Shown here one piece after another: positions 15,058 to 40,217 of a DNA stretch of 64,000 nucleotides. Position numbers and translations under genes: made by a program. The DNA lies in NCBI GenBank assembly GCA_018992685.1, contig JACVGT010000013.1, forward strand, positions 1 to 64,000. The letters run 5' to 3'. Each line of letters begins with the position of its first letter. The stretch's first letter is position 1. Origin of the DNA: Theionarchaea archaeon (GTDB lineage Archaea; Methanobacteriota_B; Thermococci; Methanofastidiosales; SZ-28-30). Below the pieces are notes generated by a model, which saw only the letters and a list, made by a program, of their open reading frames with translations, made no database searches and was not told where the DNA came from.

Positions 15058-15495
15058 ATGAACAGGAAAGAAGCACTCCTGACTGAAATGAAGACATCCG
15101 TGGAGAACCTCTTGGAAGCAGCTCAGGCAGTGAAAGGATTCGAATCCACTCCCGTAACGGGCACCTGGACCGCAAGTGAGGTTCTGTCTCATATAGCAGC
15201 CTGGGATCTCTATTTTAGAGAGCTCAGCAAGACCCTGAAGAGAGAAGATCCTCTACCAGAATGGCCTGATTTCAATGAATTCAATGAGAAAGCAGTTTCA
15301 GAAAGAAGGGACAAATCCAGAGATCAACTCGTTGAGGAAGTGAGGAAAACCAGGGACACGTACATACAGTTCATACAGGAGCTGCCTGAAGATGAGGTTT
15401 TCAACAAGGGAGTCCACAAATTCAGCATAGGAAGCCTGGCCAAGGACATCATTGACCATGATAAACACCACCTGAAACAGCTGAAAGCGCACTAG
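15058..15495 (+). CDS. DinB/YfiT-fold metal-binding protein
   Basis: The 145-residue protein has the four-helix-bundle pattern of the DinB/DfsB group. Candidate metal ligands are His45 (LSHIAAWD) and the pair in HDKHH near the end, matching the family's three-histidine site. Members include thiol-S-transferases that use bacillithiol or mycothiol, which is notable because a bacillithiol operon lies 19 kb away; the actual reaction is not known. A TATA box (CTTTTAAT, 15030-15037) is centred 25 bases before ATG 15058, so the mRNA is probably leaderless. Its stop abuts the stop of the converging pcp gene. Confidence 0.75.
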   Translation: MNRKEALLTEMKTSVENLLEAAQAVKGFESTPVTGTWTASEVLSHIAAWDLYFRELSKTLKREDPLPEWPDFNEFNEKAVSERRDKSRDQLVEEVRKTRDTYIQFIQELPEDEVFNKGVHKFSIGSLAKDIIDHDKHHLKQLKAH

Positions 15496-33811: not shown

Positions 33812-33961
33812 GCATAAAGGTTCTTTTCATTGTATAAGAGGGTTTGGTTTCCGTTCATGGAATCGAACTCAGACTCAGTGCGATCCTCTTTCAACGTACA
33901 CGGATACATGGAAAGAGCCCCATGCATCCTGAGAACTGGACCAAATTGCTGATAACAAAAC

Positions 33962-33970
33962 ACATATAAA
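33962..33970 (+). promoter_or_regulatory. Promoter of the bacillithiol operon
   Basis: ACATATAAA is centred about 26 bases before ATG 33992. It is the only good TATA box ahead of the four overlapping genes, so a single leaderless transcript is expected. Confidence 0.6.
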
Positions 33971-33991
33971 CCTGAGCTGACATCGTAGTCC

Positions 33992-34441
33992 ATGGCAGAC
34001 ATTATCGTCAACAGGAAGAGCTTCAAGCAACTTCCCAGAATGACCAGGGACTTCATGAAGCGGGCTTCTTCAGAAATCGATATCATAACCCGCTCTTTTA
34101 CCTGGGCAGATGATGAGACTCTGGAAACCATGTACGCTCTGATAAACAAAGGTGTTAGGATTAACATTGTGGGAAAATATGGAGATGAATCGAAAGAAAT
34201 CATTAAGCAGCTGATAAAGCTTGGTGCCACAGTAAAGCTTCACGAATTCGCTGGTGAAGCCCGTTTCATGATCATTGATGAGAAAGAAGTCGTTTTCGCC
34301 ATCAGAGAACCTCTCACTCCAACAGAACGGCACTATGTTGGTATCTTGATGAAGGATGAATCCACCGCACGAACAGTAAAACAGTACGTTTTTGATGCAA
34401 TATTCAAGGAGGCTGAGGAAGCATCCTATGTTGTCTCTTGA
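33992..34441 (+). CDS. PLD-like single-domain protein heading the bacillithiol operon
   Basis: The 149-residue protein resembles the PLD-like domain found in TrmB-type archaeal regulators: IDIITRSFTW, then YALINKGVRINIVGKYG, then VKLHEFAGEARFMIIDEKEVVFAI. The catalytic HxKxxxxD of true phospholipase D is not intact, and no HTH is present, so it is more likely a ligand-binding or regulatory protein than an enzyme. It overlaps bshC by 14 bases and lies first in the operon, hinting at a role linked to bacillithiol production or use. Confidence 0.6.
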   Translation: MADIIVNRKSFKQLPRMTRDFMKRASSEIDIITRSFTWADDETLETMYALINKGVRINIVGKYGDESKEIIKQLIKLGATVKLHEFAGEARFMIIDEKEVVFAIREPLTPTERHYVGILMKDESTARTVKQYVFDAIFKEAEEASYVVS

Positions 34442-35948
34442 TCCTCGCCTTTACCTTTCAGGACTTCCCCTGGATTACTTCACCAACTTTTGCAAAGTTG
34501 CCTCCTATTTCTCTGCAGACTACCATACGATAATGTCAAAGAAAAGTGCTATATCTGATGAGGTTATTTCCTCCATTGAATCTTATAATAGAGAGATAGG
34601 AGCAAGTTCCCTCGTCTTTGAGAATATCGCCCGGTTGCAGGAGAACTCTCCCGTGGTGACCGGACAGCAGCCCTGCTTACTGACAGGACCATTGTTCGTC
34701 GTTTACAAGGCACTGACGGCAGTACTCCTGGCAGAAAAGCATGGGACGGTGCCCATATTCTGGAACGCCTCAGAGGATGATGATGCAGTCGAGGTAAACC
34801 ACATCTGGGTTCACAATACAAAGCTTGAAGAAATCTCCATTTCCCTTGAGTCAGGACCTTTCTTCACTTCAGATATCAGTCCTCAAGAGAAGACCCATGT
34901 AATCACCATGCTCAGAGAGTTGACACCCCCAACCGAGTTCCGCGAACCTGTTCTGGACATGATCAGTGCAAGTTCGGAAAGGTTTTCTCAGATGTTCTCT
35001 CAGCTCCTATCGACTTTGTGCAGCGAGTACGGACTTATCATGGTGGAACCACATCTTTTCTATGAACATGCTATTCCTCTCTATGAACAACTGATCACTC
35101 ATCCCTTGAGAGCCACAGCACTGGTGAATGAAGCGGGCAACCACCTTGAAGACATGGGATATAAAAGACAGGTGCACAAGCCAGCAGAGATGTGCAGTTT
35201 CTTCATTCTTGAACGTGGACACCGACATTCAGTAACCTTTGATGGAGTATTCCATGTGGAAGATGAATCGTTCACGACTCCAGAAATGCTGGCCTACCTA
35301 TATGATCATCCAGGACAGGTTATTTCGTCAGTGATCTCCAGGCCGCTCGTCCAGGACTTCCTCTTATCAACGGCGGCGTACTGTGCTGGACCAGGCGAGG
35401 TATCATATTTCGCCCAGATGAAACGCGTGTACGAGTTCTTCAAGGTCAAAGAACCTGCCATCGTGCCCAGGCTTGGAGCAACTCTCATGGAGCCCAAGGT
35501 GCGCAAAGTGCTGGAAAAGTACGCATTAGAGGTTTCTGAACTTAGAGAGCCGGAAAAGGTATTGAAATCAATAGTAAAGGAGAATATCGAAGAATTCTTT
35601 GATGTACAGAAGAAAGAGGTTTTTCAGATCATGGGAGGTATCCAGGAGTACATCACACAGGTAGACGAGAGTCTGAAAAGAACTGGGGCAGCCATGACAA
35701 ATCACATTCTGCAGGACCTCAAGAGGTTGGAAGACAAGACAGCCTCTGCTCTCAAGAAAAAAAACGAAATTGTACTGCAGCAGATAATGAAAGCCTCTTC
35801 CAACACATTTCCCAATAATGCTCTCCAGGAAAGGATGCTCAACATATTCCAGTATATAATCCGGTATGACACTGTCGTAGAAGCAATATACGAATCATTC
35901 CGTCACGCGGTTCCAGGAGAACACCTCATACTCCCCCTTGGTGATTGA
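34428..35948 (+). CDS. bshC: Bacillithiol synthase (cysteine-adding enzyme)
   Basis: BshC adds cysteine to GlcN-malate, the last step of bacillithiol synthesis. The 506-residue protein shows the family's characteristic blocks: VVTGQQPCLLTGPLF (about 77-91) and FWNASEDDDAVEVNHIW, followed by the C-terminal coiled-coil and cap (about 380-506). Usual length is about 540. ATG 34428 starts just after a GAGG and overlaps the PLD-like gene. It is followed without a gap by bshB. The match to BshC blocks is strong; activity in this organism is inference. Confidence 0.88.
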   Translation: MLSLDPRLYLSGLPLDYFTNFCKVASYFSADYHTIMSKKSAISDEVISSIESYNREIGASSLVFENIARLQENSPVVTGQQPCLLTGPLFVVYKALTAVLLAEKHGTVPIFWNASEDDDAVEVNHIWVHNTKLEEISISLESGPFFTSDISPQEKTHVITMLRELTPPTEFREPVLDMISASSERFSQMFSQLLSTLCSEYGLIMVEPHLFYEHAIPLYEQLITHPLRATALVNEAGNHLEDMGYKRQVHKPAEMCSFFILERGHRHSVTFDGVFHVEDESFTTPEMLAYLYDHPGQVISSVISRPLVQDFLLSTAAYCAGPGEVSYFAQMKRVYEFFKVKEPAIVPRLGATLMEPKVRKVLEKYALEVSELREPEKVLKSIVKENIEEFFDVQKKEVFQIMGGIQEYITQVDESLKRTGAAMTNHILQDLKRLEDKTASALKKKNEIVLQQIMKASSNTFPNNALQERMLNIFQYIIRYDTVVEAIYESFRHAVPGEHLILPLGD

Positions 35949-36611
35949 ATGGATGTCCTTGCATTTTCACCTCATCCCGATGATGCCGAATTGGGAACTG
36001 GCGGCTTCCTCTTAGAGATGCGAAAAAAAGGGTATACCACAGGAATTGTGGATCTAACAGCTGGAGAACTGAGCAGCGCTGCCACTGCTGAAATCAGGGC
36101 GGCAGAATCAGAGGAAGCTTCTCGCCTTCTGGATCTAGAAGTCAGGGAAACCATGAACTTCAGAGACGGCAGCCTTACAGATTCATTTGACTCCCGGTTA
36201 CAGGTGGCAGAAATCATCAGAAGGTATAAGCCCCGGGTTGTGTTGGCGCCATACCACGAAGACCGTCATCCTGACCATGTGGCCTGTTCTCTCACGGTAA
36301 AGTCTGCTGTCCTCTATGCACGCCTCAAGAAACTCGGAGAACCACATTACCTCACCCACCTCTACTATTACATGCTGAATACTCCTTTTGCACCAACCTT
36401 CATCATGGATATATCTCATTCCTTCGAAAAGAAGATGGAAGTCCTTTCATGTTATAGATCTCAATTCGGGGCAGAGATTCCCCTTCTCAAAGACTACATA
36501 CCGCACGCACGGACAAAGGCCTCCTACTATGGATCATTGGTCTCTGTGGCATATGGTGAACCCTTTGGGATAGAAGGATTTTTAAAAGTAAGTGACCCTG
36601 TTAATCCATGA
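35949..36611 (+). CDS. bshB: GlcNAc-malate deacetylase
   Basis: This zinc hydrolase of the LmbE/PIG-L fold removes the acetyl group from GlcNAc-malate. The metal-binding AFSPHPDDAELG is at about 5-16, with the third ligand in HEDRHPDHV (about 98-106). The length of 220 is typical for BshB1. The start codon follows the bshC stop directly (TGAATG) and its last four bases overlap bshA (ATGA), so the three are tightly coupled. Related LmbE enzymes act on other N-acetyl sugars; the operon context decides the assignment. Confidence 0.88.
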   Translation: MDVLAFSPHPDDAELGTGGFLLEMRKKGYTTGIVDLTAGELSSAATAEIRAAESEEASRLLDLEVRETMNFRDGSLTDSFDSRLQVAEIIRRYKPRVVLAPYHEDRHPDHVACSLTVKSAVLYARLKKLGEPHYLTHLYYYMLNTPFAPTFIMDISHSFEKKMEVLSCYRSQFGAEIPLLKDYIPHARTKASYYGSLVSVAYGEPFGIEGFLKVSDPVNP

Positions 36612-37687
36612 GAATTGGGATCACCTGTTACCCCACCTTTGGAGGGAGTGGCGTGCTGGCCTCAGAACTTGGCCGTCAGCTCTCCAAGACCCATGACGTG
36701 CATTTCATCTGCTATGCACGGCCCTTCCGTCTAGAAGGGACAGATATCCCTTTTCACAAAGTCGATGTTCTGGCATATCCCCTCTTTAAATTTCCCCCAT
36801 ATACGCTGGCGCTGGCCTCTAAAATGCTGGAAGTGGTCCAGGAAGAAACCCTGGATATCCTCCACGTTCATTATGCAGTTCCCCATTCCACATCTGCATA
36901 CTTGGCCAAGAAGCTACTCAAAGACTCCATCAAGGTCGTGACCACGCTGCATGGGACCGATGTCCAGCTCGTGGGACTAGATCCTTCGTACTACAGTATA
37001 ACGAAGTTCTCTATTGAACAGGCAGATGGTGTTTCTGCAGTCTCAGAATCTCTGAAGAATTCCACCAAGGAGAGATTCAACATTGAAAAGGATATTCAGG
37101 TCATTTACAACTTTGTGGATCCTGCTCGATACTGGACGGAGGACCATGAGAAAAAGGTAGTCACTCACATGTCCAATTTCAGGCATATTAAGAGAATTCC
37201 CGATGTTATTGATGCATTCTGTAAAATCTCGTCTTTGGTACCTGCAAACCTGTACCTGGTGGGTGATGGGCCAGACCTGCCGTTAGCTGAAGAAATGGTT
37301 AAGAAATGCAAGATACAAGACAAGACAACGTTTTTTGGAAATGTCTGCTCCATAGAGGAAATACTGGCCAGGACTGACATATTCCTTCTGCCCAGTGGAC
37401 AGGAGAGTTTCGGACTCGCAGCTCTTGAAGCTATGGCTTCCTCTGTGCCTGTGATAGCCACTAATGTAGGAGGACTACCTGAGTTTATCGATCATGGAGA
37501 AAATGGGTTCTTGTGCCCCTTGGGAGATACACAAGCCATGGCAGAATATGCAGTTGAGCTGCTCCGGGATGAAAACTATCGAAAGGAAGTTGGCAAGAAA
37601 GCCAGAAGAAAAGTCGAAAAATGGTTTACTCCTGAGATTATTGTACCCCAATATGAAGCTTTCTATGAATCAGTGTTAACAGCGTAA
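36608..37687 (+). CDS. bshA: L-malate glycosyltransferase of bacillithiol synthesis
   Basis: BshA joins GlcNAc from UDP-GlcNAc to L-malate, the first step. The protein is a GT4 glycosyltransferase of 359 residues. The N-terminus MRIGITCYPTFGGSGVLASELG closely follows the BshA signature (IG..CYPT.GGSGV.A.ELG), and HVHYAVPHS and LHGTDVQ(L)VG are also BshA-like. The C-terminal donor site has PSGQESFGLAALEAMA. It ends the operon. The UDP-GlcNAc it needs could come from glmM and glmU, 1.2-3.9 kb away. Confidence 0.9.
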   Translation: MRIGITCYPTFGGSGVLASELGRQLSKTHDVHFICYARPFRLEGTDIPFHKVDVLAYPLFKFPPYTLALASKMLEVVQEETLDILHVHYAVPHSTSAYLAKKLLKDSIKVVTTLHGTDVQLVGLDPSYYSITKFSIEQADGVSAVSESLKNSTKERFNIEKDIQVIYNFVDPARYWTEDHEKKVVTHMSNFRHIKRIPDVIDAFCKISSLVPANLYLVGDGPDLPLAEEMVKKCKIQDKTTFFGNVCSIEEILARTDIFLLPSGQESFGLAALEAMASSVPVIATNVGGLPEFIDHGENGFLCPLGDTQAMAEYAVELLRDENYRKEVGKKARRKVEKWFTPEIIVPQYEAFYESVLTA

Positions 37688-38903: not shown

Positions 38904-40217
38904 TCAGACACTATCTTCCAAAAGCTTCTTCATCAGCTCCAGCTTCTTCTCTTTGGCAAATCGGAGTTTATTCATCTTCTTTAACTCTACCTGTCGGGTG
39001 AACAGCATGGTGTCAGGTTCCAGGTTCTCGTCCACCATGACATGAGACCCCACGATAGAATTGGGACCGATCCTCATCCCAGGCAAGATGGAAGCATTGA
39101 TGCCAGTCTTGCAGTTCTCCCCCATGACGCACCCGAACTTGTCCATCCCCGTTTCCACAGACTGCGCATTGATTTTCACCTTCACCTGCTTTTCATCAAA
39201 GCGGAAGTTGGCAGTGACTGTCCCCGACCCAAAAGAGCATCCATCGAGGATGATGGAGTCACCCACATAATTGGTGTGAAACCAGCAGTCGGCTCCGATG
39301 TAACAATTCTTTACCTCTGTAGAGAACCCAACCACTGTCCGTGCTCCGATATGAGAATAATCTCTCACCAGAGAGTTGTTCCCAATGATGCACCCTGGAC
39401 CCAGATACGCAGGCCCATGGACAGTGGCATACTCAAAGACTCTCACATCTTCTTCAATTATGACCTTGCCTTTTATGGTAGCTTTTTCAGAAATCTCCGC
39501 AGACTCTGCAACCCGGGGCAGTGCTGTGTCCATGAAATAACGTGTGGCTGCAAAGATGTGCCAGGGATACTTGACAGCAGTCCAGAACCCGTCATACATC
39601 ACGGGTGAAAACACAAATCCTTCCTTTATCATGGAAGTGAGGGCTTTCTCATACACGTCATCACGAGAACTTTCTGTCTTTTCCAGGAATTTCAACAGGG
39701 TATCGGCATCCCTGTGGTAGTGCACCACAAGGTTTACCAGATCGGAGGGTTCATTCCCCGCTCCGGGTTTTTCCATGATACCCTTGACTTTTCCTTGGTC
39801 AACTATGAGATACCCGCCCGGGAAGTATTTCTGCACCTTGTATCCAAGAATGCACGCATCACTCTCGCCTTCACGTGCAGCGAACATATTGTGGTACGCA
39901 GAAGATTCAAACAGGTCATTGGGGTTTACCACCAAGATTTCATCGCCTGAGATGACCTCTCTTGCAGCAAGGAGCGCATCTGCCATCCCTAGAGGATGTT
40001 TCTGCACCACGTAAGCATGAGCATTGCCAGCCACTTCTTTGATATCTGAAATATTCTCGGGGTTGGAGACGATGACAAAATCATTCACGCCTGCTCTCTG
40101 AGCCAGCTCGATTTGATGTAAGATGAGTTCTTTGCCCAGAAACTTTAGCAGACATTTCTCCTTTACAATAGGGAACATTCGTTTCCCCACGCCGCCTGCA
40201 AGGAAGACAATCTTCAT
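38904..40217 (-). CDS. glmU: GlmU-like sugar-1-phosphate nucleotidyltransferase/acetyltransferase
   Basis: The N-terminal half is a nucleotidyltransferase: FLAGGVGKRMFP (5-16), KEKCLLKFLG, NPNDLFE (metal Asp region). The C-terminal half is a left-handed beta-helix with many I-G-hydrophobic hexapeptides (about 245-400). Archaeal proteins of this plan (437 residues) activate GlcN-1-P to UDP-GlcNAc, or act on glucose-1-P. The nucleotidyltransferase motif is partly degenerate (GGVGKRM rather than GxGxRL/MxPLT), so the exact specificity is not certain. The start overlaps glmM by 4 bases, which supports the amino-sugar role. Confidence 0.8.
   Translation of the reverse strand: MKIVFLAGGVGKRMFPIVKEKCLLKFLGKELILHQIELAQRAGVNDFVIVSNPENISDIKEVAGNAHAYVVQKHPLGMADALLAAREVISGDEILVVNPNDLFESSAYHNMFAAREGESDACILGYKVQKYFPGGYLIVDQGKVKGIMEKPGAGNEPSDLVNLVVHYHRDADTLLKFLEKTESSRDDVYEKALTSMIKEGFVFSPVMYDGFWTAVKYPWHIFAATRYFMDTALPRVAESAEISEKATIKGKVIIEEDVRVFEYATVHGPAYLGPGCIIGNNSLVRDYSHIGARTVVGFSTEVKNCYIGADCWFHTNYVGDSIILDGCSFGSGTVTANFRFDEKQVKVKINAQSVETGMDKFGCVMGENCKTGINASILPGMRIGPNSIVGSHVMVDENLEPDTMLFTRQVELKKMNKLRFAKEKKLELMKKLLEDSV

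What the first reader, a model, noticed from the sequence alone, without database searches (positions are those of the whole stretch)
33992..37687. Complete bacillithiol biosynthesis operon in an archaeal genome
bshC, bshB and bshA sit in one tight operon (14-base overlap, zero gap, 4-base overlap), behind a PLD-like gene and one leaderless promoter. Bacillithiol is established mainly in Firmicutes, Deinococcus and Bacteroidota relatives. A full set in a genome with TFB, EndA and other archaeal genes suggests that this archaeon makes bacillithiol or a variant as its low-molecular-weight thiol. The PLD-like leading gene has no known role in the pathway. Seen directly: motifs and overlaps. Inferred: product and use.
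Basis: partly seen in the sequence, partly recalled or inferred. Interest (0 to 1): 0.8.

Follow-up and report, generated by a model that had tools for sequence, protein, structure and literature searches.

The report
Archaeal bacillithiol-making gene operon
A Theionarchaea genome carries a complete, conserved operon of the three enzymes that make bacillithiol, a protective small thiol so far demonstrated only in bacteria, which means that this archaeon can probably make it too; some Asgard archaea carry closely related operons.

Summary
Confirmed. At 33992-37687 lie four overlapping genes: gene 1, bshC, bshB and bshA. All three Bsh proteins exceed NCBI's equivalog cut-offs, and the known BshA and BshB motifs are intact. 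The host is archaeal (TFB and EndA on the contig; 0.71% contamination). A second MAG of the genus, named 'Theionarchaea archaeon SZ_28-30', carries the same operon, neighbours and promoter, and the genes evolve under purifying selection (dN/dS 0.06-0.12). Archaeal glmU-like and glmM genes, which make UDP-GlcNAc, lie 1.2 kb away.

BshC is absent from the other 113 genomes of the phylum. DinB/STL proteins, the bacillithiol-transferase superfamily, occur in just the same two genomes. Gamma-glutamylcysteine synthetase, bacilliredoxin and a true YpdA were not found.

In trees the operon groups with Aerophobetes and with C-B-A operons of two Asgard families, so it arrived by horizontal transfer with direction unresolved. 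Gene 1 is not an enzyme: it is a cysteine-free, stand-alone TrmB-type sensor domain.

Most likely the archaeon makes bacillithiol from UDP-GlcNAc, malate and cysteine. The product is inferred, not shown. A 2020 review predicted archaeal bacillithiol from Asgard BshA and BshC hits; a 2025 survey found no complete archaeal pathway. This is a new member of a known kind.

The parts
33951..33991 (+). Conserved promoter block: BRE-like AACAAAACAC and TATA-like ATATAAA (33964-33970), about 25 nt from TATA centre to the ATG of gene 1; probably leaderless
   Evidence: Near-identical in the sister genome while the upstream spacer diverges; transcription start inferred, not measured
33992..34441 (+). Gene 1: stand-alone TrmB-type sensor (half-PLD fold) domain, 149 aa, no wHTH, no HKD motif, no cysteine
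   Evidence: PF11495 25.0 bits over its cut-off; about 33% identical to the C-terminal part of a full-length TrmB regulator of the same genome; 95% identical in the sister genome, dN/dS 0.034
34428..35948 (+). bshC: cysteine-adding enzyme, 506 aa
   Evidence: TIGR03998 342.7 bits, cut-off 265.8; PF10079 and PF24850; B. subtilis BshC 4WBD E 2e-39
35949..36611 (+). bshB (BshB1): N-acetylglucosaminyl-malate deacetylase, 220 aa
   Evidence: TIGR04001 213.3 bits, cut-off 182.5; HPDD and RHPDH metal/catalytic motifs conserved with 2IXD
36608..37687 (+). bshA: N-acetylglucosaminyl L-malate synthase (GT4), 359 aa
   Evidence: TIGR03999 485.1 bits, cut-off 273.7; B. anthracis BshA 3MBO E 4e-113; GT4 EX7E motif (ESFGLAALE) intact
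38904..40217 (-). Archaeal GlmU-like sugar-1-phosphate nucleotidylyltransferase/acetyltransferase; likely UDP-GlcNAc supply, not part of the operon
   Evidence: TIGR03992 282.5 bits, just under its cut-off of 292.1; same place in the sister genome
40214..41569 (-). Archaeal phosphoglucosamine mutase GlmM; likely UDP-GlcNAc supply, not part of the operon
   Evidence: TIGR03990 449.5 bits, cut-off 439; same place in the sister genome
15058..15495 (+). DinB/STL-superfamily protein, candidate bacillithiol S-transferase (145 aa); unlinked
   Evidence: PF12867 over its cut-off; in the phylum only the two bsh genomes have this family; three-histidine pattern (SHIAAWD, HDKHH) read from the sequence

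Best explanation
The operon encodes a working bacillithiol pathway in a Theionarchaea-type archaeon. BshA joins GlcNAc from UDP-GlcNAc, probably supplied by the neighbouring archaeal GlmM and GlmU-like enzymes, to L-malate. BshB, a zinc deacetylase, frees the amine. BshC adds L-cysteine to give bacillithiol (Cys-GlcN-malate), which would serve as this archaeon's dedicated low-molecular-weight thiol. Possible uses are redox and metal buffering and conjugation by DinB/STL transferases; oxidised bacillithiol would have to be reduced by general thioredoxin-reductase-like enzymes, because no bacilliredoxin or true YpdA was found. The genes form one transcription unit led by a stand-alone TrmB-type sensor domain, which I suggest binds a sugar or pathway intermediate and adjusts operon expression or enzyme activity. 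The operon arrived by horizontal transfer: it belongs to a C-B-A operon branch shared with Aerophobetes bacteria and two Asgard families. Shown by computation: gene content, families, conservation, selection, host and tree position. Inferred: the product, its use, the role of gene 1 and the direction of transfer.
For: All three enzymes exceed curated equivalog cut-offs. Each has its characterised counterpart as best or near-best PDB match: 4WBD for BshC, 2IXD and 6P2T for BshB, 3MBO and 5D00 for BshA. BshB metal/catalytic motifs and the BshA GT4 EX7E motif are intact. Operon, neighbours and promoter are conserved in a second MAG, with dN/dS 0.06-0.12 for the bsh genes. The host is archaeal: TFB, EndA and archaeal GlmM/GlmU-like on the contig, contamination 0.71%, sister contig titled Theionarchaea. 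Glm genes lie nearby. DinB/STL occurs in the same 2 of 115 phylum genomes as BshC. Gamma-glutamylcysteine synthetase is absent. C-B-A order and tree clade are shared with other bsh operons.
Against: No thiol has been measured in any Theionarchaea, and according to the 2020 review (PMC7278568) bacillithiol had not been detected in any archaeon. Specific bacillithiol reducers (YpdA over its cut-off, bacilliredoxin PF06491) are missing, although the Aerophobetes relative also lacks them and the search controls found PF06491 only in B. subtilis. BshC is only about 25% identical to the B. subtilis enzyme, so acceptor or amino-acid specificity could have shifted. The DinB co-occurrence rests on a single lineage and is not independent evidence.
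Confidence: 0.85

Rival explanations
1. The operon makes a bacillithiol variant: a different acid acceptor, a different amino acid, or a later modification such as N-methylation.
For: BshC is 25-35% identical to every relative outside the genus; N-methyl-bacillithiol exists in bacteria (PMC6282198, PMC12719100).
Against: BshA, which fixes the malate step, is highly conserved and far over its cut-off; no methyltransferase lies in the operon. NmbA was not searched genome-wide.
Confidence: 0.1
2. The enzymes were recruited to another pathway, such as glycoconjugate synthesis, and no free thiol is made.
For: The genome holds ten other GT4-type glycosyltransferase matches; no dedicated bacillithiol reducers were found.
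Against: All three dedicated enzymes are kept together under purifying selection; to my knowledge BshC has no use outside thiol synthesis, and in the controls it rings in B. subtilis, Thermus and Deinobacterium only.
Confidence: 0.04
3. The operon is a bacterial contaminant or a chimeric contig.
For: The nearest relatives of the enzymes include a bacterium (Aerophobetes).
Against: Two MAGs share the operon inside identical archaeal gene neighbourhoods, directly beside TFB; base composition of the bsh genes matches the window (46-48% against 47%); contamination 0.71%.
Confidence: 0.01

Closest known systems
Bacillithiol biosynthesis in Bacillus, Staphylococcus, Thermus and Deinococcus (BshA, BshB1/B2, BshC)
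   Same: All three enzyme families, above equivalog cut-offs, with conserved BshA and BshB motifs
   Different: The host is an archaeon; the genes form one overlapping C-B-A operon led by a TrmB-type sensor domain; no bacilliredoxin or YpdA was found
C-B-A bsh operons of bacteria such as Dethiobacter, Aminicenantes, Planctomycetota and Hydrogenedentes (Aerophobetes has C-A)
   Same: Same gene order, and the closest trees among bacteria
   Different: No gene 1; bacterial hosts; Theionarchaea fall in a separate branch with Aerophobetes and Asgard
Asgard bsh genes, noted in the 2020 review (PMC7278568) as BshA and BshC homologues
   Same: Families f128 and f140 carry canonical C-B-A operons that join the Theionarchaea operon in one clade
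   Different: Most other Asgard BshC proteins score far below the cut-off and, in f42, carry a zinc-ribbon-like insertion; the genes are arranged differently
TrmB family sugar-sensing transcription regulators
   Same: Gene 1 matches the TrmB sensor domain and a TrmB regulator of its own genome
   Different: Gene 1 has no winged-helix DNA-binding domain and no cysteine

Membership tests
Bacillithiol biosynthesis pathway | BshA equivalog with GT4 catalytic motif | tested here: met
   485.1 bits against 273.7; ESFGLAALE motif
Bacillithiol biosynthesis pathway | BshB deacetylase with HPDD and HPDH metal/catalytic motifs | tested here: met
   213.3 bits against 182.5; motifs aligned with 2IXD
Bacillithiol biosynthesis pathway | BshC equivalog with Rossmann-like and coiled-coil domains | tested here: met
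   342.7 bits against 265.8; PF10079 and PF24850
Bacillithiol biosynthesis pathway | Proteins fall inside Bsh clades in trees | tested here: met
   BshC, BshA and concatenated trees
Bacillithiol biosynthesis pathway | Bacillithiol is produced | not testable with these tools
   Needs bimane HPLC-MS or enzyme assays
Bacilliredoxin/YpdA reduction system | PF06491 bacilliredoxin and a YpdA equivalog in the genome | tested here: not met
   No PF06491 match; best YpdA match 80 bits against 339.9
TrmB transcription regulator (gene 1) | C-terminal sensor domain PF11495 | tested here: met
   25.0 bits, cut-off 22.2; homologous to the C-terminal part of a TrmB regulator
TrmB transcription regulator (gene 1) | N-terminal winged helix PF01978 | tested here: not met
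   Absent from the 149-aa protein
Phospholipase D (gene 1) | HxKxxxxD catalytic motif | tested here: not met
   The matching stretch reads EARFMIID; PLDc_2 is under its cut-off
TrmB sensor fold (gene 1) | Predicted fold matches solved TrmB sensor or PLD structures | tested here: inconclusive
   AlphaFold2 model poor, pLDDT 49.8; no significant match

The most novel reading that the evidence does not exclude
Bacillithiol synthesis has a broad and old history in archaea. A distinct C-B-A operon branch is shared by Theionarchaea, two Asgard families and Aerophobetes, a deeper divergent BshA/BshC set is spread through other Asgard families, and in Theionarchaea the operon acquired its own cysteine-free TrmB-type sensor that reads a pathway metabolite.
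Probability: 0.3. Interest if true: 0.65.

Novelty: new member of a known kind. Interest (0 to 1): 0.52.

Why it matters
Which small thiol protects archaeal cells is largely an open question. [quoted passage not shown] The 2025 NmbA survey (PMC12719100) found no archaeon in RefSeq with a complete pathway. A full, conserved operon in Theionarchaea, and sister operons in Asgard archaea, show that complete archaeal gene sets exist in MAGs outside that survey's reach and give a compact, directly testable gene set for showing archaeal bacillithiol. They also mean that comparative surveys of thiols should include archaeal MAGs.

Tried and rejected
(1) Gene 1 as a PLD enzyme: rejected, HKD motif missing and PLDc_2 under its cut-off. 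(2) Structure of gene 1: the model was too poor to use and its fold search gave nothing. (3) Viral contigs for BshC: none. (4) 'Only Theionarchaea among archaea have a canonical BshC', suggested by the 396-genome sample: withdrawn after the Asgard phylum search found nine more over the cut-off. (5) 'Simple gift from a bacterium', suggested by the first BshC tree: weakened after adding Asgard operons. The union of Theionarchaea, Aerophobetes and Asgard f128/f140 is well supported (100/99), but its inner order is not (AU p 0.041 for archaea without Aerophobetes, 0.081 for Theionarchaea with Aerophobetes). (6) Gene 1 next to other bsh operons: no match in any fetched locus. (7) Window DinB protein against PDB: no match. 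(9) A BshA tree rooted on GT4 paralogues of the same genome was distorted by very long branches and was replaced.
Full report
What is there. The four genes lie exactly as described: gene 1 at 33992-34441, bshC at 34428-35948, bshB at 35949-36611 and bshA at 36608-37687, with overlaps of 14, 0 and 4 bases. bshC begins at an in-frame ATG at 34428; the longer mechanical ORF starts at a TTG upstream. Against NCBI's curated equivalog models the proteins score 342.7 (BshC, cut-off 265.8), 213.3 (BshB1, cut-off 182.5) and 485.1 bits (BshA, cut-off 273.7). In the PDB, the best BshC match is B. subtilis BshC 4WBD, BshB matches 1UAN, 2IXD and 6P2T, and BshA matches 2JJM, 3MBO and 5D00. The HPDD and RHPDH motifs of BshB and the EX7E motif of BshA are intact. 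That these are the metal/catalytic motifs of their families is my own knowledge, not a result obtained here.

The host. The contig carries TFB, tRNA-intron endonuclease EndA and archaeal GlmM and GlmU-like genes. The assembly is 91.2% complete with 0.71% contamination. A second genome of the same genus has the operon in the same neighbourhood, between a Sir2/IF-2B-like pair and TFB, glmU-like, glmM and gyrA. Its contig matches in length and match position a public record titled 'Theionarchaea archaeon isolate SZ_28-30'. Contamination is therefore excluded for practical purposes.

Constraint. Between the two genomes the protein identities are 95% (gene 1), 78% (bshC), 80% (bshB) and 89% (bshA), with dN/dS of 0.034, 0.116, 0.104 and 0.061. 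The 40 bases before gene 1, with an AACAAAACACATATAAA block whose TATA centre lies about 25 nt before the ATG, are nearly identical while the spacer upstream has diverged. The operon is maintained and probably transcribed from one archaeal promoter; leaderless initiation is inferred from spacing only.

Gene 1. Pfam's TrmB sensor family is over its cut-off (25.0 against 22.2 bits) and PLD-like is not. The PLD motif HxKxxxxD reads EARFMIID. The genome's only other relative found is a 279-286 aa regulator with a TrmB winged helix, and gene 1 aligns with that protein's C-terminal part at about 33% identity. Gene 1 is thus a stand-alone sensor domain. It has no cysteine, so it is not itself a thiol switch, in contrast to OxsR, a single-winged-helix TrmB protein that is a thiol-based regulator (PMC9426492). 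It was not found beside any other bsh operon fetched here. A structure model failed (pLDDT 49.8). Its function, binding a sugar or pathway intermediate, is a hypothesis.

Pathway context. UDP-GlcNAc, the sugar donor of BshA, can be supplied by the glmU-like gene that begins 1.2 kb beyond bshA and the glmM gene next to it. Asgard family f42 also has glmM two genes from its bsh set, a parallel that may or may not be meaningful. Gamma-glutamylcysteine synthetase was not found in either Theionarchaea genome, while the Haloferax control rang. Bacilliredoxin was absent and YpdA-like hits stayed far below the cut-off. DinB/STL proteins, the superfamily of bacillithiol transferases (PMC5815605), occur in the phylum in just the two genomes that have BshC; one lies in this window at 15058-15495. 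Because both genomes belong to one genus, this is one observation, not two.

Distribution. BshC over the cut-off was found in 2 of 115 genomes of the phylum and 2 of 396 archaeal genomes sampled across the domain. A dedicated search of the Asgard phylum (Asgard identity inferred from ESCRT-II EAP30) changed the picture: 120 of 227 genomes have some match to BshC at E 0.001 or better, the weakest of which may be chance, and nine exceed the cut-off, eight in family f128 and one in f140. In the five f128 loci read and in f140 the genes again stand as C-B-A; the f140 contig is only 5.3 kb long, so contamination is not excluded for that one. Most other Asgard sets read here have a BshA-type enzyme (over its cut-off in the two f42 proteins scored) next to a much diverged BshC-like protein (57-62 bits in the two f42 proteins scored) with, in some families, a diverged BshB. 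The model of one such BshC-like protein (pLDDT 74) has 4WBD as its only significant PDB match (E 4.5e-15), so the fold is BshC's.

Trees. BshC: Theionarchaea, Aerophobetes and Asgard f128/f140 form one group (SH-aLRT 99) near C-B-A operons of Planctomycetota and Hydrogenedentes, away from Bacillota. Concatenated C+B+A: the same group is separated from twelve other bacterial operons at 100/99. BshA alone joins Theionarchaea with Aerophobetes (95/87) and places f128 and the diverged Asgard forms outside (midpoint root). The AU test neither firmly accepts nor rejects an all-archaeal group (p 0.041) or a Theionarchaea-Aerophobetes pair (p 0.081). Absence from the rest of the phylum and kinship with distant phyla argue for horizontal transfer into Theionarchaea; the donor is unresolved. 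Bacterial sampling was limited to the 80 best BshC loci, without Bacteroidota or Chlorobiota in the operon trees.

Literature. The 2020 review (PMC7278568) lists 39 archaeal hits each for BshA and BshC, most in Asgard, and no detected bacillithiol in archaea. The 2025 paper (PMC12719100) reports no archaeon with the complete pathway in RefSeq. In the searches run here no paper turned up that describes Bsh genes in Theionarchaea.

Verdict. It is a new archaeal member of a known pathway, in an unexpected host, with a new leading gene. The product remains to be shown by chemistry.

Noticed in passing
L151-L156 (Asgard families f128 and f140): Canonical bshC-bshB-bshA operons in Asgard archaea, closely related to the Theionarchaea operon; complete archaeal bacillithiol gene sets that the surveys read here do not report.
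   Followed up: partly
L105-L110 and L157-L161 (Asgard families f42, f123, f125, f129): A BshA-type enzyme beside a much diverged BshC-like protein, in f42 with a zinc-ribbon-like insertion and altered GQQ motif, and in some families a diverged BshB; the f42 BshC-like model matches 4WBD.
   Followed up: partly
window:15058-15495 and L147, L148, L150: DinB/STL-superfamily proteins (candidate bacillithiol transferases) occur in the phylum only in the two genomes with bsh genes.
   Followed up: partly
window:41578-44010: DNA gyrase subunit A (TIGR01063, 1168.6 bits) next to glmM in an archaeal genome; conserved in the sister genome.
   Followed up: no
L121 and L122: Full-length TrmB regulators whose sensor half is the only other relative of gene 1 found in the phylum; possible partner of gene 1.
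   Followed up: partly
L105-L110 (Asgard f42): A 423-aa ORF (a class I/II aminotransferase in the one copy scanned) lies convergent to bshC in all six loci, and a GlmM-sized ORF (GlmM in the copies scanned) lies two genes from bshB in the longer loci.
   Followed up: no
window:51036-52997: Large flavoenzyme of the FadH/OYE type, close to BaiCD and mycofactocin-associated OYE models but under their cut-offs.
   Followed up: no
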